Source of the DNA: Amanita rubescens
Lineage: Eukaryota; Basidiomycota; Agaricomycetes; Agaricales; Amanitaceae
Length of the DNA: 64,000 bases
Reading direction: 5' to 3'
Assembly (NCBI GenBank): GCA_015039365.1
Contig: WION01000287.1
Location: 1 to 64,000 of the forward strand
The position numbers were made by a program, and so were the translations under genes. Below the pieces are notes generated by a model. That model made no database searches, was not told the DNA's origin, and saw only the letters and a program-made list of their open reading frames with translations. Shown one piece after another: positions 15,625 through 56,900 of this stretch (within the stretch, counting starts at the first letter, position 1; each line of letters begins with the position of its first letter).

Positions 15625-17029
15625 ATGTCGCGTCCTCGTCCCAGGACAGTGTACCACCATACCATTCCCCGCTTCATCCTCAAGTACTTCCAGAGTACTC
15701 CACCCCTGTGAGTGCATTACTTCAAAGCTATGCCGGCGCACAAGGTGACAGCCTGAGTGCCTTTCCATCCTCATAATAGATCGAGGAAGTTAGTCGATCA
15801 ACAGAAAACTTAAGGCAGACGGGGAAAGACCCACGAAAGCTTCGTGTATTCAATCTCTCTACTGGGGTTCTAGATGAACTCTCGTTTGACGATGCTTATG
15901 GTGTCCACAATCTCTATCGAGACTACAAAAATATCGACGACATTGATGAAGTCGAAAGCAAGCTTGGCCAGCTCGTCGAACATCCATCGGTTGAACTCAT
16001 CCAGTCGATACACGCAGACGCAGCGGGTGGTCGGGACATCGTCGTCTCGCGGGAGAAGCTCGAACGTCTCCGCAAGTTCATCTTCATCATGTTCTTTCGA
16101 CAAGTCGGCGTATCGCACCACTTCTTCGACGTGAACCACCCCGATAATGCCGCCAGCGCCGCAGTGGATTGAAGAGTTTGCCAAGGCCGTGGCGAGGCGT
16201 GGTGGAGGGTCCGCTACGGCTCTGGACATGTGGCTGCGTGCTTTGGCATACATCATCGATACGCTGCACAATGATTTGATCAAACAGGGGTTTGAATGCA
16301 TGCCCGGTTTTGGCGATGCTCGTGCGGATCCCGCCAAAAGTTGCAAACTCGTATGCGACGCTGGGAGGGTGTTATTACCTGCAAATTTGGCAGACCGCAC
16401 CCGGTCGCGAATTCGTCTTGACGGATAATAACATGGGGCTCTTCGAGGGCCTGGCAAACTTCCTCAGCCCCTCTTTTGGTCGTTTAAGCCTTCCAGAAAC
16501 GCTCCCACAAGGACTCCACCGATTGTTCGTTATTAGTCCCACGATGACGTTTGTGCTTCGCCTGAACGATAACATTATAAACACAATGGCAAGGGAAAGG
16601 CAGGTTCTAATCAACGGTGACCTGGATAAGATTCCGAAGATCCTGCCCGTCTCTAAAACTGTTGGCGACATGCCACTGGACAAAAATATCCATCAGTACA
16701 GAGCGGGCCCTGGCCAAAAAGACAAATTCACCTTCACGATCACCACACTCACGCCAGAGCAGACGGACCAAGTTAACTTCGTGCTCCTTCGTGAGGTGAA
16801 AAAGAATGGCTTCCTATCATTCAAAGATACAAAGCTGTGTGGAGAGCTACTCACACGGTATTGGAAGGCTACTTACTTTGTTGACATGGGGGAGCGACCG
16901 AAATTACGGCCGCTTTATTCCCAACTTGTTCCGAAGGAGACAAGGGCATCCCTGTCAGTGCAAACTTCTTTGTCGGTCCCCGAGTTGTCTGGAAACAGGA
17001 GCACTCCATCATCTTCGATCGAAGTCTGA
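15625..17029 (+). pseudogene. DUF4238 family gene with frame breaks
   Basis: The N-terminus has the family signature YHHTIPRFILKYFQ. After an intron starting at 15709 come LRVFNLSTGVLDELSFDDAYGV, NLYRDY, a long helix with FFRQVGVSHHFFDVNHPDNA, then WIEEFAKAV, WLRALAYIIDTLHNDL and finally YYLQIWQTAPGREFVLTDN with HRLFVISP, the usual DUF4238 order. The three main blocks are in three different frames: breaks lie near 16150-16165 and near 16300. There are no splice sites at those points, so as written the gene is inactive. The molecular function of DUF4238 is unknown. Confidence 0.75.
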
Positions 17030-17262: not shown

Positions 17263-20200
17263 TTACTGACTTAGGCCTGTATGATTGTTCATAAATAGTC
17301 TATGACTAGAAAAGTACATACCATCAATGTGAGTCACCTGCCCATAGAGTAATGTGACAAAATCTTGGCCAGAGTGCAGAAGGTCTGAAGTAATACCAGT
17401 TTTCAACTTCTGAACATAGCCTTTTTGCTTGTATTGATCCAAGGCTTCTGTAAGTGATGGCAGAAATGGTTTGTTGATCCAAAAGGAAAGCTTGGCAATA
17501 ATAATAATTGCTTAAAGGTTTAAGCATAAATACCATAGATAAAAAGGAGTGATTTACAAACTAAGACCTGACAATAAGTAGGCTTACACTTGTGATGGCA
17601 TCAGTTGTGTAGTAGCAAAGAAAAACAGAACAAAATACCTTGACTGCAAAGGTCTTTTGCTCATCTCCAAATATGGAGAAAAGTTCATCCTAGTTACAGT
17701 AAGATGATAGAGTTAAATATCCCATGTACATATCATCAGACTTACACACTAGCAGGCAAACTAATATGAAAGTCAATACCTCATGAACCAGCATTACTTA
17801 CCTGGAAATCAAGATAAGAGAGAGGATTGATCACATAAGGTGGGAATGGGTCAGCTGAAATGAGATCTTACAGTCTATGATAATAATATAAAAGGGAGAT
17901 ATAAAAAGAATATGGCAACATGCTCACTGTCTGATGTACATAGAATGTAATGATATATCAAACATTCATTAATTGAGGTATGCTCAGCCTGAGAATGCAG
18001 GTCAGAAAGTTGCAATGTGACTCACAAGCTATTGGTTGGAGTGCTGAGACTGTCATCCAAAAATGATATGCAATGTCACTCACATCCTGTTGGTCATAGG
18101 AAAAGATGTGATGAGACTGCCTTTCACAAAATGTCCAATGTCACTCACTCCCTGTTGGTCATAGGAAAAGATGTGATGAGACTGCCTTTCACAAAATGTG
18201 CAATGTCACTCACTCCCTGTTGGTCATAGGAAAAGATGTAATGAGACTGCATTTCACAAATATGCAATGTCACTCACTTCCTGTTGGTCATAAGAAAAGA
18301 TGTAATGAGACTACCTTTCAAAAAATGTGCAATGTCACTCACATCCTGTAGGTGATAGGAAAGGATGTAATGAGACTGCCTTTCACAAAATATGCAATGT
18401 CACTCACTTCCTGTTGGTCATAGGAAAAGACTGCCTTTCACAAAACGTTGCAATGTCACTCACTTCCTGCTCATCATAGGAAAAGATGTGATGAGACTGC
18501 CTTTCACAAAATGTCCAATGTCACTCACTTCCTGTTGGTCATAAGAAAAGATGTGATGACACTGCCTTTCACAAAATGTGCAATGTCACTCACATCCTGT
18601 TGGTCATAAGGAAAGATGTGATGACACTGCCTTTCACAAAATGTGCAATGTCACTCACTTCCTGTTGGTCATAGGAAAAGACTGCCTTTCACAAAATGTG
18701 CAATGTCACTCACTCCCTGTTGGTCATAGGAAAAGATGTAATGAGGCTGCCTTTCACAGAATGTCCAAAGTCACTCACATGCTGTTGGTCATAGGAAAAG
18801 ATGTCATGAGACTGCCTTTTACAAAATGTGCAATGTCACTCACTTGCTGTTGATCATAAAAAGATGTGATGAGACTGCATTTCACAAAATGTGCAATGCC
18901 ACTCACTCTCTGTTGGTCATAGGAAAAGATGCAATGTGACTGCCTTTCACAAAATGTCCAATGTCACTCACAAGCTATTGGTCATAAGAAAAGATGTGAA
19001 AAGACTGCCTTTCACAAATGTGCAATGTCACTCACTCGCTGTTGGTCATAGGAAAAGATGTGATGACACAGCCTTTCACAAAATGTCCAATGTCACTCAC
19101 TTCCTGTTGGTCATAGGAAAAGATGTCATGAGATTGCCTTTCACAAAATGTGCAACATCACTCACTCGCTGTTGGTCATAGGAAAAGATGTGATGACACT
19201 GCCTTTCACAAAATGTCCAATGTCACTCACTCGCTGTTGGTCATAGGAAAAGATATGATGAGACTGCCTTTCACAAAATGTCCAATGTTGCTCACTCCCT
19301 AGTTGGTCATAAGAAAAGATGTGATGACACTGCCTTTCACAAAATATCCAATGTCACTCACAAGCTGTTGGAGGAAAAGATGTGATAAGACTGCCTTTCA
19401 CAAAATGTCTAACATCACTTACTTGCTGTTGGTCATAGGAAAAGATGCCATGAGACTGCCTTTTACAAAATGTCTAATGTCACTCACCCGCTGTTGGTCA
19501 TAGGAAAAGATGCCATGAGACTGCCTTTTACAAAATGTGCAATGTCACTCACTTCCTGTTCATTATAGGAAAAGATGTAATGGGACTGCCTTTCACAAGA
19601 TGTCCAATGTCACTCACATGCTGTTGGTCATAGGAAAAGATGTAATGAGACTGCCTTTCACAAAATGTCCAATGTCACTCACAAGCTGTTCAAGGTCATA
19701 GGAAAAGATGTGATGACACTGCCTTTCACCAAATGTCCAATGTCACTCACAAGCTGTTTGTCATAGGAAAAGATGTGATGAGACTGCCTTTTCACAAAAT
19801 GTCCAGTGTCACTCACAAGCTGTTTGTCATAGGAAAAGATGTGATGAGGCTGCCTTTCACACAATGTCCAATGTCACTCACTCCCTGTGGGTCATAGGAA
19901 ACAATGTGATGAGACTGCCTTTCACAAAATGTCCAATGTTACTCACTCCCTGTTGATCATAAAACAAGATGTGATGACACTGCCTTTCACAAAATCTGCA
20001 ATGTCACTCACTCGCTGTTCGTCATACTAGGAAAAGATGTGATGACACTGCCTTTCACAAATTGTCCAATGCAACTCACTTCCTGTTGGTCATAGGAAAA
20101 GATGTGATGACACTGCCTTTCACAAATTGTCCAATGTCACTCACTTCCTGTTGGTCATAGGAAAAGATGTGATGACACTGCCTTTCACATAGTGAAATGC

Positions 20201-22805
20201 CACTCACTCCCTGTTGGTCATAGGAAAAGATGTGATGAGATTGCCTTTCACAAAATGTGCAATGTCACTCACTTGCTGTTGGTCATAGGAAAAGATGTGA
20301 TGAGATTGCCTTTCCCATAATGTGCAATGTCACCCACTTCCTGTAGGTCATAGGGAAAAAATGCATAGAACAACTTTTCAGAAATAATTTGATGTTACTC
20401 ACATACTATTGGCCATAGGCAAAATTTTGATAAGGTCATCTTTTGAACCACTAAATCACCACTGTGACGTGCTGCTAACCTCCTATGTTCATGAAAAGAT
20501 GTAACTTTCTTTTGACCAGACTTGCAATAAGTTCACTTACAATCTATATAACAACAGAATGTGTCCAAATTGTCCTTTAGTAAGAGTGGCTAGCATCACT
20601 CACTTCCTTTTGGAGTGAAATTAGCTTCATGAATTGGAAAAAAAGAAAACAATACCACTGACTCTCTTTTGCCATTTTATTTTATTTTTTGAATTCACAT
20701 CTCACAAAAGGGTCACATACATCCTGTTTCTTTTGGTATAGCTGTGAAGAAGCTTTGAAAAGGAGACATTTACTGTCTGTTGTTTTGGGACAAGATGTGA
20801 TGTTTATAAGCAGACAGAAAGGAAATGCCATTTACTTTCTGTTATTAATCCAATCAAATTTGTCAAGACACTCTTTCAGATAACAGTATGTCACCAACTT
20901 TCTATTGATCATTCACTTATGTCTGATAAAACATCAATGTTGCTTACTTTCTTCCAGAAGGTCAGATGTGGTTGAAGAAGTGTTGTATTACTCACTCCCT
21001 GTCCACAAGAGACCAGATGATTGACAACTTGCATGATTACAATGATAGATAGCTCACTTGCTATTGGTCATATGATGCACCATGGAATCTTTTACCAAAA
21101 ATCAAAATTAAGTCATGTCACTCACTTCCTGTAGATTATGGGACAAGACTGCTGATTAAGAAAGAAAATGTTGCTCACAAACTATTGCCATGAGACAAAT
21201 GTCAGATCTATGCTAGTTCAATGTCACTTACCCACTGATATCAATATCATCAGATCCTGCCACCAAGAATATGGTAACAACTAACCTGTGTTTCACTCAG
21301 TTGATCATTGGCCATCTGAAGCATTACTAATCCTGTTTTCATGTGAATGCACTGGCCCAGTGTTACATACCTCCTGATGAATTTTTGTAAGTATTTATCA
21401 TTCCAGATGAAGGCCACCTACCTCCCTGTCCAACTATTGCCATTTAAATTTTCCTATGCTGATGTGCAGTTTGAAAAAAATGCATACCCAGAAATGTGGA
21501 AATTTTGAAAAAACTTTGATCATGACATCATCCCATGGATCTTCATGTCTCAGAACATGTCTGAACAATGTCAATGTTAGTAAGTGACAAGTTGTGAGTG
21601 TGACCTCACTGAAGTGCAGATTTAACACAAAGGTCAAGATTATTCATCTGTGTTGAAACAAACAGCTGATGTATGCTGTCATCATCTATTGCATCAGCAG
21701 TTTGCTGAGTTAATTCAGCACAATTCTTCTCAGGTAAATCCATGTCTATGAAATAACATTACTCCCATTTTAGAAAGAAATCCTCATCATTCTCACCTTC
21801 CAATCGCACATATGCCTTGGGAGGGTATTTGGCATCCAAAACTTTAGGAAGATAAACCTTCTGAAAAGTGATTTCAGCAATTTCACTGGCTCTCTCCCAC
21901 TTATCTTCATCCTTTGTATCAGTCAAGTTGACAAATTCACTGGCTATTTGACCATCAAATTTAGTGAATACAACCACCAAGGGAACTGTAAAGGAAATAT
22001 TTACTAGTCAGCACTAGTAGATTTTATGGCAAGTTGGCCAATGGAAAGAAGGTAACCTCTCCAAAACCAACAAGTTACACAGTGAGATATGAATTCATTA
22101 GGACTCACCTCTGCCTGTCCCTTTATTGAAGAATTCAAGTTCTGCAGATAGAATGGGACGAGGGCTGTCCATGGGTATACAGTACCTAGAGGAAGCAAGG
22201 TCAGCCAGTACTGTAAAGGGAAAAAGCATAATACCAAATTGCATGCAGCTGGCTTTTCAGCTCAGTTTCTGCAGACTTCTTTTCAATGAAGTTCCAAGCA
22301 ATCTCCAATTCCTCATTTGAACCACATTCAAAACCCTTAGAGTCATGGAAGATAAAGTTACTTCCAGGGTATGTAATTTGATGCTCAATATCATGCTCGC
22401 CTCTCTGTTATCATTGCATGTGAATGGGTACATCCATACATCATTACCTGACTCACCTCGACTGATGGCATCAAATGAATCACAGACTGTTCAAGTTGAT
22501 TACCTGCAAGAAACTCAGCAATCAAACTTGGAAGCACAAAACTGAGATTGACTTACCATCCCTGTCACATATGATGGGCTTTGTCCCCTTTGCTACACCA
22601 CAAACCTTCTCCAGGATGGTTGTCTTGCCTGCATTAGCCCTCCCAATGACAAGGATGCGAAAGTGTGGGCATAGATAGCGCTCCCTGAGCATCTGAACAC
22701 GTGTCTCATCCAAGCCTGCATCTGATATGTGTCAGTCAAGGGTTAGCAATGCTGAGTCACATAAATTAGCCTACTCAAGGAATGTGCACCAGTTGTAGCT
22801 GCCAT
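17263..22805 (-). CDS. G-domain protein (GRANAGKT type) with 53 single-codon exons
   Basis: Large exons: 22805-22775, 22721-22557, 22503-22457, 22404-22235, 22185-22109, 21985-21797, 21745-21610, 21560-21488. They give P-loop GRANAGKTT (G1), HDSKGFE (G3, DxxG) and FTKFD (G4), typical of mushroom AIG1/septin-like GTPases. Small exons follow: 21433-21422 (12 nt), 21315-21286 (30 nt) and 53 of 3 nt between 21373 and 18026. The tail exons are 17988-17928, 17854-17802, 17689-17639 and 17490-17263. Every join is GT-AG and in phase: 1482 nt, 67 exons, no stop. The tail has PFPPYVINPLSYLDF, then FWINKPFLPSLTEALDQY. The single-codon region is rich in Glu, Gly, Arg, Leu and Gln. The GTPase part is very sure; the micro-exons are inferred; the last exon's end is least certain. 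Confidence 0.8.
18010..20345 (-). repeat. 65-bp tandem array: 37 intron-plus-codon units
   Basis: Thirty-seven copies, mostly 65 bp apart (range about 55-68). On the minus strand each unit is GTGAGTGACATTG...CTATGACCAACAG followed by three bases, then the next GTGAGT. The three bases are GAA in 10 copies, GGA in 7, CTT in 6, CGA in 4, GAT in 3, CAA in 3, CAT in 2, and CGG and AGA once each. Donor changes keep GT (GTAAGT near 19420, GTGAGC near 19293, GTGGGT near 20335). Acceptor changes keep AG (CTACAG, CAATAG, ACTAG, GAGCAG). The unit is not a multiple of three and short plus-strand ORFs crossing it are accidental. Confidence 0.95.
20346..21373 (-). other. Sixteen diverged intron/single-codon units outside the tandem array
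   Basis: Three-base exons (minus strand) lie at 21371-21373 GAG, 21232-21234 TGG, 21179-21181 TTT, 21126-21128 GAA, 21058-21060 CAA, 20996-20998 GGA, 20948-20950, 20899-20901 and 20836-20838 AAA, 20774-20776 ACA, 20721-20723 GAT, 20663-20665 AGA, 20604-20606 GAA, 20541-20543 ATT, 20480-20482 GAG and 20403-20405 TAT. Each is preceded by AG and followed by GT (GTAAGT, GTGAGC, GTATGT, GTTAGC, GTTGGT and similar). The segments between are 45-74 nt, the normal intron size, but differ in sequence. A 30-nt exon (MANDQLSETQ) lies between the first two. Confidence 0.8.
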
Positions 22806-39700: not shown

Positions 39701-42020
39701 GTGAGGCAGTGGAATCAGGTCCGTGAGATTGTTTTTCCCCTTGCAAATAAATTAAACATCTTATGTTCAGGAGAATATTGACGATATAGCATCATTTGCA
39801 AGTGATGCAATGAAGTTTGTCTCTGTATTTGGACCGCCGATCTCACAAAGCGCACCACACGTTTACCTGTCAGCACTACCATTTGCACCGAAGAATTCAT
39901 TAGTTGCAAAGCAATATCTACGGCTATATCCAAACTCGAAGACCTTGTGCTTGAAGACAGGCAAGGCAGACCATTGGCCTGCATCCATAAGCGTATTTGA
40001 GGGACACACCGATTGGGTCAACTCTGTCGCATTCTCGCAGGACAACATGCGCATCGTTTCTGGCTCGAAGGACCGGACCATCCGAGTCTGGGATGCAGAA
40101 ACCGGGGAAGTTGTTGTAGGGCCGCTCAAGGGACACGCCCGTTCGGTCAACTCTGTCGCATTCTCGCATGACAGTAAGCGCATCGTTTCTGGCTCGGACG
40201 ACCAGACAATCCGAGTCTGGGATGCAGAGACCGGGGAAGTTGTTGTAGGGCCGCTCAAGGGACACACCGATTTGGTCAAATCTGTCGCATTCTCGCACGA
40301 CAGTAAGCGCATCGTTTCTTGCTCGTGGGACAGACAATCCGAGTCTGGAATACAGAGACCGGGGAATGTTGTTGTAGGGACACACCCATTCGGTCAACTC
40401 TGTCGCATTCTCGCACGACAGTAAGCGCATCGTTTCTGGCTCGTCGGACCAGACAATCCGAGTCTGGGATGCAGAGACCGGGAGAGGTTGTTGTAGGGCC
40501 GCTCAAGGGACACACCAATTCGGGTCAACTCTGTCGCATTCTCGCACTGACAGTAAGCGCATCGTTTCTGGCTCTTTGGACCAGACAATCCGAGTCTGGG
40601 ATGCAGAGACCGGAGAAGTTATTGTAGGGCCGCTCGAGGGACACACCGAATGGGTCAAATCTGTCGCATTCTCGCACGACAGTAAGCGCATCGTTTCTGG
40701 CTCTTTGGACCAGACAATCCGAGTCTGGGATGCAGAGACCGGGAGAAGTTATTGTAGGGCCGCTCAAGGGACACACCGAGTCGGTCAACTCTGTCGCATT
40801 CTCGCACGACAGTAAGCGCATCGTTTTACTGGCTCATGGGACAAGACAATCCGAGTCTGGGATGCAGAGACCGGAGAAGTTGTTGTAGGGCCACCCAAGG
40901 GACACACCCATTCAGGGTCAACTCTGTCGCATTCTCGCACGACAGTAAGCGCATCGTTTCTGGCTCGGATGGACCAGACAATCCGAGTCTGGGATGCAGA
41001 GACCGGAGAAGTTGTTGTAGGGCCGCTCAAGGGACACCATTGATTTGGTCAACTCTGTCGCATTCTCGCACGACAGTAAGCGCATCATTTCTGGCTCGCT
41101 GGACCACATAATCCGAGTCTGGGATGCAGAGACCGGAGAAGTTGTTGTAGGGCCTCAAGGGATACACCAATTCGGTCAACTCTGTCGCATTCTCGCACGA
41201 CAGTAAGCGCATCATTTCTGGCTCGCTGGACCACACAATCCGAGTCTGGGATGCAGAGACCGGAAAGTTGTTGTAGGGCCGCTCAAGGGACACACCAATT
41301 CAGTCAACTCTGTCGCATTCTCGCACGACAGTAAGCGCATCATTTCTGGCTCGCTTGGACCACACAATCCGAGTCTGGGATGCAGAGACCGGAAAAGTTG
41401 TTGTAGGGCCGCTCAAGGGACACACCAATTCGGTCAACTCTGTCGCATTCTCGCACGACAGTAAGCGCATCATTTCTGGCTCGCTGGACCACACAATCCT
41501 AGTCTGGGATGCAAAGACCGGAAAAGTTGTTGTAGGGCCGTTCAAGGGACACACCGATTCGGTTAACTCTGCCGCATTCTCGCACGACAGTAAGCGCATC
41601 GTTTCTGGCTCGTCGGACCAGACAATCCGAGTCTGGGATGCAGAGACCGGGGAAGTTGTTGTAGGGCCACTCAAGGGACACAATCATCATATCACCTCTG
41701 TCGCATTCTCGCACAACAGTAAGCGCATCGTTTCTGGCTCGTCAGACCGCACAATCCGAGTCTGGGATGCAGAGACCAGAGAAATTGTTATAGGCGATCA
41801 TAACCTCGCAAATTCATTTACAGACGCTTCCACCCTGGCGGATGGGTGGATTTGTAATTCCTCCTCAAAACTACTTTTTTGGGTGCCACCTTGGAATCGC
41901 GCAGGATTGTGCTGGGGAAGGAACCATTTCGTAATTGTTTCAGATTCCCCCTCTACATCTCTTAATCTGGATAATTTTGTACATGGCAATTCATGGCAGC
42001 AATGCCATGAACATCGGTAA
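36748..42020 (+). CDS. C2-NACHT-WD40 STAND protein (NLR-like), with many frame breaks
   Basis: The N-terminal C2-like domain has LDKFYVELVIDGESKHKTGL, GNAASWTDSFYL and LECRLYAKNIFKDKFIGGTK. A helical linker (EKVKSFTEFVDGIARVS) leads to the NTPase with Walker A GVAGSGKSAIAHT and Walker B ILVVIDALG. Winged-helix-like segments (DIPIRPLHASFFEFLTHQN, LYWLEVLSLIKKVN) precede about 14 WD40 repeats (39998-41790). The gene closes with LLFWVPPWNRAGLCW and HGNSWQQCHE. Such proteins control allorecognition and programmed cell death in fungi. Frames break at several points in both the NTPase and the WD40 part, so as written no full product is possible; base errors or real decay both fit. Confidence 0.85.
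39998..41790 (+). repeat. About 14 near-identical WD40 repeats, unit ~129 bp
   Basis: Each unit encodes GHT..VNSVAFSHDSKRIVSGSxDxTIRVWDAETGEVVVGPLK and differs mainly at a few positions: the residues after GHT, and the pair after SGS (DD, SS, LD, KD). Such high internal conservation with variable blade positions is known from fungal NACHT-WD40 incompatibility genes, where repeats are reshuffled. One-base gains or losses occur in several units, for example GGGGAATGTTG near 40364 and GGGAGAGGTTG near 40480. Confidence 0.9.
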
Positions 42021-53939: not shown

Positions 53940-56900
53940 TGCCTGGTAAATATAGGAGTGTGGAGATTTGAAAGGCTTTATAACAGCTGTGGTAAAGAAA
54001 ATCTGCACACAATGATGCAAATGCCAATAGCAATCCTCATTCATTCTGATTCAAGCAATTTTGGCAGATTATACTGTGACCATAGACTAACTGGCTCAGT
54101 TAGGTTCACAAACAACTACCTAGTCATTATGGCAAGTGTAAAGATTTCAAAGGCTTCACAATGGAGCCAAGGTATGGAAGATCTGCACAAATGAAGAATA
54201 TGAACCTCCCATTCAAGTTGATTCAAGCAGTTCAATTTGGCAGATCACAGACTAACTGTCTTGTTTATACACCTAAACAACTAACTGCCCAGTCATCATG
54301 CCAAGTATGGACACCTGGAAGGCTTTGTGAGGCAGATGTGATATAAGATCTGCACAAAAGTGAACTATGTATAGCAACCTCACAATCATTTTGATTCAAG
54401 TAATTTCAGCAGATCACATAGACTAACTGTCTTGTTTAAGCACCTAAACAATTGTCCAGTCATCATGGCAAGTATGGACACCTGAACTAGTCTTTGTAAT
54501 GCAGCTGTGATATTGAAGATCTCTGGCACACAAGTGAACTACACATAAATGAGGAATGCATATATGTATAGCAACCTCTCAATCATTTTGGTTCAAGCAG
54601 TTTTGGAGATCACATGACCCTTCACACCAGCTGGCTGGTGTGAAGGGTCATGTGACCTAGACTAACTGCCTTGCTTAGGCACCTAAACAAGTGCCCAGTC
54701 ATCATGGCAAGTATGGACATTTGAAAGGCTTTGTAATGTGACTGTGATATTGAAGATTTGCATGCAAGTGAACTACACACAATTGAAGAATACAAACATG
54801 AATATGTATAGCAACCTCACAATCATTTTGATCCAACTAATTTCAGCAGATCACATAGACTAACTGTCTTGTTTAGGCACCTAAACAATGGTCCAGTCAT
54901 CATGGCAAGTATGGACACCTGAACTAGTCTCTGTAATGCAGCTGTGATATTGAAGATCTGCACACAAGTGAACTACACATAAATGAGGAATGCATATATG
55001 TATAGCAACCTCTCATTTTGGAGATCACATGACCCTTCACACCAGCCAGCTGGTGTGAAGGGTCATGTGACCTAGACTAACTGCCTTGCTTAGGCACCTA
55101 AACAAGTGCCCAATCATCATGGCAAGTATGGACATTTGAAAGGCTTTGTCATGTGACTGTGATATTGAAGATCTGCATCCAAGTGAACTACATACAATTG
55201 AAGAATACAAACATGAATATGTATAGCAACCTCACAATCATTTTGATTCAAGTAATTTCAGCAGATCACATAGACTAACTGTCTTGTTTAAGCACCTAAA
55301 CAATTGTCCAGTCATCATGGCAAGTATGGACACCTGAACTAGTCTTTGTAATGCAGCTGTGATATTGAAGATCTCTGGCACACAAGTGAACTACACATAA
55401 ATGAGGAATGCATATATGTATAGCAACCTCTCAATCATTTTGGTTCAAGCAGTTTTGGAGATCACATGACCCTTCACACCAGCCAGCTGGTGTGAAGGGT
55501 CATGTGACATAGACTAACTGTCTTGTTTAGGCACCTGAACAACTGTCCAGTCATCATGTCAAGTATGGACACTTGAAAGGCTTCACAATGCTGCTGTGAT
55601 ATTGAAGATCTGCACACAAAAGCACTGCACAAATGAAGATATAGCAATCTCTCATCATTTTGCCTCAAGCAAGTCACTAGGTGCCTCAATGAGCCAATTA
55701 GTCTATGGTGATGTGATCTGTTGAAATTAGTTGAATCAAAATGATTGTGAGGTTGCTATACATATTCATGTTGTATAGTTCACTTGTATGCAGATCTTCA
55801 ATATCACAGCTGCATTACAAAGCCTTTCAAATGTCCATACTTGCCATGATGACTGGACAGTTGTTCAGGTGCCTAAACAAGACAGTTAGTCTATGTCACA
55901 TGACCCTTCACACCAGCTGGCTGGTGTGAAGGGTCATGTGATCTCCAAAACTGCTTGAACCAAAATGATTGAGAGGTTGCTATACATATATGCATTCCTC
56001 ATTTATGTATGTGTAGTTCACTTGTGTGCAGATCTTCAATATCACAGCTGCATTACAGAGACTAGTTCAGTTGTCCATACTTGCCATGATGACTGGACCA
56101 TTGTTTAGGTGCCTAAACAAGACAGTTAGTCTATGTGATCTGCTGAAATTAGTTGGATCAAAATGATTGTGAGGTTGCTATACATATTCATGTTTGTATT
56201 CTTCAATTGTATGTAGTTCACTTGGATGCAGATCTTCAATATCACAGTCACATTACAAAGCCTTTCAAATGTCCATACTTGCCATGATGATTGGGCACTT
56301 GTTTAGGTGCCTAAGCAAGGCAGTTGATCTAGGTCACATGACCCTTCACACCAGCCAGCTGGTGTGAAGGGTCATGTGATCTCCAAAACTGCTTGAACCA
56401 AAATGATTGAGAGGTTGCTATACATATATGCATTCCTCATTTGTGTGTAGTTCACTTGTGTGCAGATCTTCAATATCAGTCACATTACAAAGACATTACA
56501 AAACCTTTCAAGTGTCCATACTTGTCATGATAACTGGACAATTGTTAGGTGCCTAAACAAGACAGTTAGTCTATGTCACATGACCCTTCACACCAGCTGG
56601 CTGGTGTGAAGGGTCATGTGATCTGCTGAAACTGCTTGAACCAAAATGATTGAGACGTTGCTATACATATATGCATTCCTCATTTATGTGTAGTTAACTT
56701 GTGTGCCAGAGATCTTCAATATCACAGCTGCATTACAAAGACTAGTTCAGGTATCCATACTTGCCATGATGACTGGACAATTGTTTAGGTGCCTAAACAA
56801 GACAGTTAGTCTATGTGATCTGCTGAAATTACTTGAATCAAAATGATTGAGATGTTGCTATACATATATATATTCCTCATTTGTATGTAGTTCACCTGTG

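What the first reader, a model, noticed from the sequence alone, without database searches (positions are those of the whole stretch)
18026..21373. An array of 53 single-codon exons inside a G-protein gene
On the minus strand, 53 consecutive segments start with a GT donor and end with an AG acceptor, and each pair is separated by exactly three nucleotides. Thirty-seven belong to a 65-bp tandem array; 16 others differ in body sequence and length (45-74 nt) but keep the same AG-NNN-GT geometry. Treated as exons, the triplets join the flanking exons in phase 0, none is a stop, and the whole gene becomes one 1482-nt frame of 67 exons. Known introns lie on both sides, and skipping the region would need a 3.5 kb intron, unusual for a fungus. 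I know of no described gene with dozens of consecutive one-codon exons.
Basis: partly seen in the sequence, partly recalled or inferred. Interest (0 to 1): 0.97.

Follow-up and report, generated by a model that had tools for sequence, protein, structure and literature searches.

The report
Hypervariable arrays of one-codon exons
In a genome that matches the blusher mushroom Amanita rubescens, about two dozen related gene copies for a GTP-binding protein carry long runs of isolated three-letter units, each set between short and often identical intron-like repeats; the units are likely spliced together as single codons into a protein stretch that differs from copy to copy.

Summary
On the minus strand, 52 consecutive AG-NNN-GT units (plus one GAG unit) lie inside a G-protein gene and join its exons in frame; shuffled sequence gives best chains of at most 2. 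It is not one odd gene: 23 of 25 other family loci read carry such arrays, and the strict junction occurs 1214 times in the genome. The pattern is inverted. In 578 units AG and GT never change and the intron body is about 98% conserved, while the triplet is hypervariable. Exon length is 3 nt in 1214 cases against 13 of 2 nt and 6 of 4 nt. TAA/TGA occurs once, in a decayed copy, against 346 CAA/CGA. P0001, a relative with an uninterrupted ORF, reads in frame through 15 conserved and 43 variable array residues, as a spliced transcript would. Function is inferred. No RNA from A. rubescens itself was available.

The parts
22775..22805 (-). exon 1 of the G-protein gene (start codon ATG at 22805)
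   Evidence: in-frame splice model
22557..22721 (-). exon 2, holds the Walker A motif GRANAGKT
   Evidence: Pfam MMR_HSR1 E 7.5e-4, below its cut-off
22457..22503 (-). exon 3
22235..22404 (-). exon 4
22109..22185 (-). exon 5
21797..21985 (-). exon 6
   Evidence: homologous exon at 150 scored places in the genome (257 candidates, 150 scored)
21610..21745 (-). exon 7
21488..21560 (-). exon 8, ends in ...KFPHFW, phase 0
21422..21433 (-). 12-nt exon LDRE
   Evidence: P0001 has VDRA and P0009 VGRD here
21371..21373 (-). one-codon exon GAG (E)
21286..21315 (-). 30-nt exon MANDQLSETQ
   Evidence: P0001 TNEQLSETK, P0009 MANKQLSEAQ
20403..21234 (-). 15 conserved one-codon exons W F E Q G K K K T D R E I E Y, introns 45-74 nt with unrelated bodies
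   Evidence: a close variant is contiguous in P0001
18026..20340 (-). 37 hypervariable one-codon exons EQGEERGGLLLHERQLGRRERLRQHGEDEEEDEGGDL in the 65-bp tandem array (mostly 62-nt intron + codon)
17928..17930 (-). predicted one-codon exon ACA (T)
   Evidence: model B; several paralogue chains end in KN or KI at this place
17872..17874 (-). predicted one-codon exon ACT (T)
   Evidence: model B
17639..17689 (-). exon DELFSIFGDEQKTFAVK, start of the C-terminal domain
   Evidence: reached directly and in frame from the array in L010, L011, L020
17558..17588 (-). exon CKPTYCQVLV(S)
17263..17510 (-). last exon ...IIIIAKLSFWINKP...VTHID..., stop TAA

Best explanation
The region is an array of AG-triplet-GT units inside a G-protein gene, and each triplet is likely a real one-codon exon that is spliced to the next, predicted to spell a hypervariable linker between the GTPase domain and a helical C-terminal domain. 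Shown by sequence: the geometry, its recurrence in many paralogues, the fixed exon length of 3, the near absence of stops, and an in-frame path through the whole gene. Inferred: the spliceosome would recognise each 62-nt intron as a unit (intron definition), so that a 3-nt exon needs no recognition of its own; because every exon is exactly one codon, gain, loss or skipping of any unit keeps the frame, so the linker can change one residue at a time. The arrays likely evolve by unit exchange and unit gain/loss within and between paralogues, which homogenises the introns while codon diversity is kept, most likely by selection for variety. The product is likely a recognition or interaction stretch of an expanded GTPase family, perhaps in self/non-self recognition or defence; that last step is a guess from analogy.
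For: In the window: 52-unit chain against at most 2 in shuffles; whole gene in frame with 67 GT-AG introns. Across the family: all 13 other loci that I fetched from the listed part (543 matches, list cut, 40 of 395 candidates scored) hold the G-protein gene with the array at the same site. Of 12 further loci found by the upstream exon/intron and not by the array (taken from 40 listed), 10 hold long one-codon chains (L031 among them is decayed) and 2 (L024, L025) keep only the first 8 codons. 578 units: AG/GT 578 of 578; donor +3 only G or A, +5 G 578 of 578; triplet columns 44/37/61% top base against 93-100% for body columns. Genome-wide strict junctions: 1214 of 3 nt, 13 of 2 nt, 6 of 4 nt, 0 in the reversed controls; TRA 1, CRA 346. 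407 triplets of 12 arrays: 0 stops in frame 0; the joined arrays have 1 and 31 stops in the two other frames. NAG-ending triplets 0 (2.8 expected); NGT-ending 3 (48 expected), which I attribute to a parsing artefact at the array's end. Conserved run: triplets 95.6%, introns 88.9% identical, triplets higher in 66 of 78 pairs. P0001: 58 array residues in frame. The C-terminal exons match the C-terminus of P0047 at 46% over 89 aa, E 8e-21.
Against: No RNA of A. rubescens was available. P0001 is a predicted protein on a 1446-nt JGI contig whose DNA and sample type I could not read; its best match among the 120 listed proteins is 84.5%, so it comes from a relative or an unsampled paralogue, and it seems to keep the last intron. 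Two searches for more such products gave only P0001 itself and P0009 (which missed P0001, so its reach is limited). P0061 seems to leave the frame after ...VFSK and to rejoin the C-terminal exon in another frame, so skipped or misspliced transcripts may exist. 24 of 578 unit exons are not 3 nt: 17 in L018, 5 in L021, one each in L013 and L019. L031 has a TGA triplet and a broken acceptor. Between close copies the codon excess is not constant: L010 and L017 show 0 codon and 1 intron substitution. Fitting P0001's variable part, the array composition beats a G-domain background by only 11 bits, though it beats the wrong frames by about 97 and 123 bits. Positive selection was not formally tested.
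Confidence: 0.9

Rival explanations
1. The whole region from 21487 to 17690 is removed as one long intron (or a few), and the 65-bp repeat is a non-coding minisatellite whose AG-NNN-GT look is accidental.
For: Minisatellites do sit in introns, and 65-bp copies repeat their own motifs automatically. Several NCBI gene models of this family end near ...FPHFWV (for example P0002), and P0083 as annotated goes from FPHYWV straight to the C-terminal part; these are predictions as listed, and no RNA support was seen.
Against: Non-tandem units with unrelated bodies keep the geometry in all 16 parsed loci apart from a misparsed end in L031. AG/GT invariance, fixed 3-nt length and missing stops have no reason to exist. 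P0001 contains a close variant of the conserved triplets' residues in order.
Confidence: 0.05
2. The introns are an introner-like family that copies itself precisely as an intron into an older, contiguous low-complexity exon, cutting it codon by codon; the codons are the old exon.
For: 257 of 585 array introns are the same 62 nt in 13 loci, and 176 units with that intron on both sides carry 21 different exon strings (near-duplicate loci were not dropped there). Units that share a rare intron differ in triplet in 27 of 47 comparisons. L009 and L016 differ at 4 of 159 exon sites and 4 of 3513 intron sites. This decoupling is what precise intron copying predicts.
Against: It does not explain why insertions fall every 3 nt. 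Exact intron ends whose flank breaks the 3-nt rule were found only within about 4.5 kb of a family exon (24 of 24 and 20 of 20), not in other genes. Units sharing a rare intron share the triplet more often than others (9 of 24 upstream and 11 of 23 downstream, against 13% of all pairs), as whole-unit duplication predicts. L010 and L017 differ by one whole unit.
Confidence: 0.25
3. The arrays are decaying pseudogene remnants that keep the look of exons only because they amplified recently.
For: L018, L021, L031, L013 and L019 have off-size exons, a stop or a broken acceptor; L024 and L025 keep only 8 units.
Against: Of the 16 chains parsed, L013, L019 and L031 are broken, and the single odd exons in window, L022 and L023 lie at the ill-defined array end; the others are open throughout. 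The only TRA triplet among the strict junctions lies in L031. Older non-tandem triplets are more conserved than their introns.
Confidence: 0.04

Closest known systems
Micro-exon genes (MEGs) of Schistosoma
   Same: Genes built largely of very short exons giving variable proteins; PMC10526429 (abstract read) gives exons of 3-81 bp.
   Different: MEG introns are long (up to 5 kbp, same abstract) and exon sizes mixed. Here introns are minimal, often identical, and nearly every array exon is one codon.
HET-D/HET-E (NWD) WD40-repeat genes of Podospora
   Same: Repeat units exchanged within and between paralogues, with four residues per repeat under diversifying selection (PMC1805685, abstract read).
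   Different: There the repeat is a coding WD40 unit. Here the repeat is an intron and only 3 of about 65 nt code.
PRDM9 zinc-finger minisatellite
   Same: A rapidly evolving coding minisatellite with variable recognition positions (PMC3890296 and PMC8925151, search listing with start of abstract only).
   Different: Units are 84-bp coding zinc fingers (recalled); no intron is part of the unit.
Introners / introner-like elements
   Same: Many near-identical introns in one genome (PMC9860276, abstract read; PMC4457414, listing with start of abstract only).
   Different: Introners insert into many genes; here the copies examined lie in one gene family at one place, in tandem, at 3-nt spacing.
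Isolated 3-nt microexons (Drosophila hth and others)
   Same: A 3-bp exon can be spliced; PMC7392893 (passages read) also lists 3-bp exons in troponin T and NCAM.
   Different: Single exons, not dozens in a row, and not hypervariable.

Membership tests
U2-type spliceosomal introns and exons | GT...AG ends with a conserved 5' splice site | tested here: met
   578 of 578 units GT and AG; +3 G/A, +4 A (577), +5 G (578), +6 T/C
U2-type spliceosomal introns and exons | Removed from the transcript of this locus | not testable with these tools
   no RNA of this species held; P0001 is indirect
Introners | Near-identical introns at many unrelated gene positions | tested here: not met
   Only for exact patterns with off-geometry flanks: 24 of 24 and 20 of 20 lie on contigs where one search lists a family exon. 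Diverged isolated copies were not excluded
Introners | Target-site duplication or terminal inverted repeats | not tested
   -
Schistosome MEGs | Sequence homology to MEG proteins | not tested
   compared by architecture only
Schistosome MEGs | Mostly very short exons | tested here: met
   55 of 68 predicted exons are one codon
Coding minisatellite under concerted evolution (NWD/PRDM9 type) | Tandem units homogenised while few positions vary | tested here: met
   that the variable positions code is inferred
Coding minisatellite under concerted evolution (NWD/PRDM9 type) | Positive selection at the variable positions | tested here: inconclusive
   In three close pairs codon sites differ roughly 9 to 22 times more than intron sites; in L010/L017 there is no codon substitution. 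No formal test was run, and unit exchange can cause clusters
Immunity-related GTPases (IRG fold) | Shared fold, G domain plus helical domain | tested here: inconclusive
MMR_HSR1 / small G domain | Pfam gathering score | tested here: inconclusive
   E 7.5e-4, 20.0 bits against cut-off 21.9; some homologues carry PF01926

The most novel reading that the evidence does not exclude
A eukaryote has built a codon-cassette system: a protein region written one codon per exon, where the intron is the recombining, homogenised unit and the codon the cargo, so that peptide sequence and length can be re-edited residue by residue without frameshift, and possibly varied again by exon skipping in each cell, to supply an expanded GTPase family with recognition diversity.
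Probability: 0.4. Interest if true: 0.98.

Novelty: categorically new. Interest (0 to 1): 0.95.

Why it matters
If true, it is an extreme of split-gene structure: dozens of consecutive exons of three nucleotides, repeated across a gene family. It would show that intron definition alone can carry splicing with no exon to recognise, would turn introns into vehicles for diversifying proteins codon by codon, and would put the question whether splicing can be accurate over 50 to 90 adjacent tiny introns within reach of one long-read RNA run. Gene finders seem to miss it: of the family's NCBI models that I read, most stop near the array, so the hypervariable part of the protein is largely absent from those entries. 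It would also reveal a likely fast-evolving recognition family in an ectomycorrhizal mushroom (lifestyle recalled).

Tried and rejected
One-intron minisatellite: rejected on AG/GT invariance, fixed length, missing stops and P0001. Decay: applies to L018, L021, L031 and perhaps L013 and L019, not to the family. Rfam: no match at gathering threshold. tRNA: none by ARAGORN, run with the bacterial code. First chain parse of L010 and L017 chose a TGA triplet because two AG acceptors compete four bases apart; with a rule preferring the upstream AG it reads GAA, and I use the second parse. In window, L022 and L023 the parser appended a spurious 4-nt exon and a TGT at the array end; these explain 3 of the 4 off-size exons and all 3 NGT triplets among the 411 exons (the fourth off-size exon is CAAT in L019). 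L031 shows two stops in the parse: TGA stands between intact splice sites; the TAA comes from the parser stepping round an acceptor that has changed from AG to GG. Rows dropped from the 407: near-duplicates L010, L013, L016 and decayed L031; L014, L018, L021, L024-L027, L030, L032 and L033 had no parsed end and were not counted. Rows dropped from the 78 pairs: L013, L016, L017. Exon lengths other than 2, 3 and 4 nt were not counted with the strict pattern. The strict counts include near-identical loci that may be alleles. Searches for more spliced products gave only P0001 and P0009. Translating arrays in the other frames gave stop-rich (frame 2) or unsupported (frame 1) readings. The AlphaFold model leaves the linker disordered (pLDDT under 50 at 294-308 and 312-357), so no structure for the array peptide is claimed. 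Literature: full-text searches for microexons with tandem introns or Amanita, three-nucleotide or single-codon exons, intron arrays, tiny or mini-exons (two searches found no paper, and searches listed only a part of their hits) show no paper that, from title and start of abstract, describes arrays of consecutive one-codon exons; subscription papers and preprints are not held.

Full report
WHAT IS THERE. The window is contig C209 of a 75.7-Mb assembly of 786 contigs. Protein names together with matching contig lengths (331246, 62722, 112015, 207192) identify it as Amanita rubescens. The minus strand holds a G-protein gene: eight exons (22805-21488) give a 296-aa GTPase part with Walker A GRANAGKT. 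Then follow a 12-nt exon, a one-codon exon GAG, a 30-nt exon and 52 consecutive one-codon exons. With two more predicted one-codon exons and three exons for a C-terminal domain the frame closes: 68 exons, 1425 nt, 474 aa, all 67 introns GT-AG (model B). The C-terminal part matches P0047 at 46% over 89 aa, E 8e-21. A chain search with no prior knowledge finds the same 52 units; 100 shuffles give best chains of at most 2.

TWO SECTIONS. The first 15 one-codon exons (W F E x G K K K/E T D R E I x Y) lie between introns of unrelated sequence, 45-74 nt in the window. They recur in all 16 loci that I could parse end to end, with F for the last residue in L012 and the last unit of L031 misparsed. There the triplets are more conserved than the intron bodies (95.6% against 88.9%; triplets higher in 66 of 78 locus pairs), as expected of coding sequence. 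The rest is the 65-bp tandem array, and there the pattern is reversed. In 578 units from 14 loci, AG and GT are unchanged in every unit and body columns are 93-100% constant, but the three exon positions have top-base frequencies of 44, 37 and 61%. The body rate of change, 2.1%, would predict about 48 changes in the four splice columns; there are none. 554 of the 578 exons are exactly 3 nt; 22 of the other 24 lie in L018 and L021.

WHY THE TRIPLETS ARE CODONS. Genome-wide, the strict junction CCAACAG-N3-GTGAGTGACATT occurs 1214 times; with two exon bases 13 times (C13 and C749 only) and with four 6 times (C13, C254, C599, C749); reversed controls give 0. These counts include near-identical loci. 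TGA/TAA in that junction occurs once, in the decayed copy L031, against 346 CGA/CAA, one C-to-T change away. In 407 triplets of 12 parsed arrays there is no stop, where base frequencies predict 21 (naive P 3e-10; units are related, so the true figure is weaker). The joined arrays read in the other two frames have 1 and 31 stops. Triplets ending in GT are almost absent (3 against 48 expected, and those 3 look like parsing artefacts) and none ends in AG (2.8 expected), as accurate splicing would demand.

TRANSCRIPT-LIKE EVIDENCE. Protein search returned relatives with uninterrupted ORFs on short JGI contigs. P0001 (386 aa on 1446 nt) continues from ...KFPHLWVDR through ...QLSETKWFEKGKKESDREIEY, a close variant of what the 15 conserved one-codon exons spell, then 43 residues of array-like composition ending in I, then VRFHFRGSPNPTSC. 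The last string matches the in-frame reading of the array's final ATT codon and the following intron in L028, L012 and L021 (IVRFHFS-SPTPTSC). So 58 array codons appear joined, with the last intron kept. P0009 shows a variant of the conserved run (WFEHGKKDTDKQIVY) and about 24 array-like residues. P0040 and P0047 are nearly identical up to about residue 250 and again after about 365, but differ in the linker, so the linker varies in another branch too. I could not read the DNA or sample type of these contigs; that they are cDNA is inferred from the uninterrupted ORFs. P0061 seems to jump into the C-terminal exon in another frame, which may be misspliced RNA. Searches aimed at the array part found no further product.

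HOW WIDE. The family exon 6 matches 150 scored places in the genome, with 257 candidates; near-identical pairs among them may be alleles or recent copies. All 13 loci fetched from the listed part of the repeat-unit search are the same gene with the array at the same place. Of 12 loci chosen by the upstream region instead, 10 have long chains; L024 and L025 keep 8 codons, and L024 then runs into unrelated sequence. One more stretch, L034, chosen by junction hits, holds several chains. Fully parsed chains run from 28 units (L019) to 86 units (L017), conserved run included. C8:77455-80515 has a 56-nt period with the codon still 3 nt in the listed rows.

HOW IT MAY HAVE ARISEN. 257 of 585 array introns are one identical 62-mer in 13 loci; 176 units with that intron on both sides carry 21 different exon strings (near-duplicate loci included). 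Three close pairs differ more in codons than in introns: L009/L016 4 of 159 against 4 of 3513, L009/L013 9 of 162 against 10 of 3506, L013/L016 5 of 162 against 12 of 3506, with the codon changes in adjacent units as unit exchange would give; L010/L017 show 0 of 255 against 1 of 5467. L010 and L017 differ by one whole CGA unit. Units that share a rare intron share the codon in 9 of 24 (upstream) and 11 of 23 (downstream) comparisons, against 13% of all pairs. Whole-unit duplication therefore likely happens, yet introns and codons are partly uncoupled. I favour unit exchange plus selection for codon diversity, as described for HET-D/HET-E WD repeats (PMC1805685, abstract); precise intron copying is the main rival.

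NOVELTY. Single 3-nt exons are known (PMC7392893, passages), and schistosome MEGs have exons of 3-81 bp with long introns (PMC10526429, abstract). A 2024 abstract states that functional microexons had not been described in filamentous fungi before (PMC11121469, start of abstract). None of the listings shows arrays of consecutive one-codon exons.

Noticed in passing
40000-41794: 129-bp tandem repeat, 13.9 copies at 90% match, that reads as WD40 blades (...GHTDSVNSVAFSHDSKRIVSGSxDQTIRVWDAETGEVVVGPLK...); resembles high-identity WD40 repeats of fungal non-self-recognition genes (WD40 label from recall, no family search run on it). The plus-strand frames are broken into several ORFs.
   Followed up: partly
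54354-56816: Overlapping tandem repeats with periods of about 200-440 bp.
   Followed up: no
16292-17029: Plus-strand ORF of 245 aa beside the gene's 3' end, weak Pfam match to DUF4238 (E 6e-4, below cut-off).
   Followed up: no
L018 (C749) and L021 (C13): Arrays with many 2-nt and some 1-nt and 4-nt exons; all 13 strict 2-nt junctions of the genome lie here.
   Followed up: partly
L031 (C537): Decayed array with a TGA triplet, an acceptor changed to GG and an odd-size exon: an internal control for what decay looks like.
   Followed up: yes
G000:C8:77455-80515: Sister array with a 56-nt period, intron about 53 nt, codon still 3 nt in the rows listed.
   Followed up: no
L024 and L025: One-codon chain stops after WFEQGKKE; in L024 unrelated sequence follows, possibly a mobile-element insertion; L025 was not read further.
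   Followed up: partly
L034 (C3:126500-136400): Several one-codon chains in one 10-kb stretch, one part rich in K, Q and E, another spelling the same residues as part of L030's array.
   Followed up: partly
P0004 (A. brunnescens): The NCBI model ends ...FPHFWVFIFAKLHISI, which resembles a reading of the A. rubescens intron after FPHFW; the same intron probably sits there in A. brunnescens.
   Followed up: no
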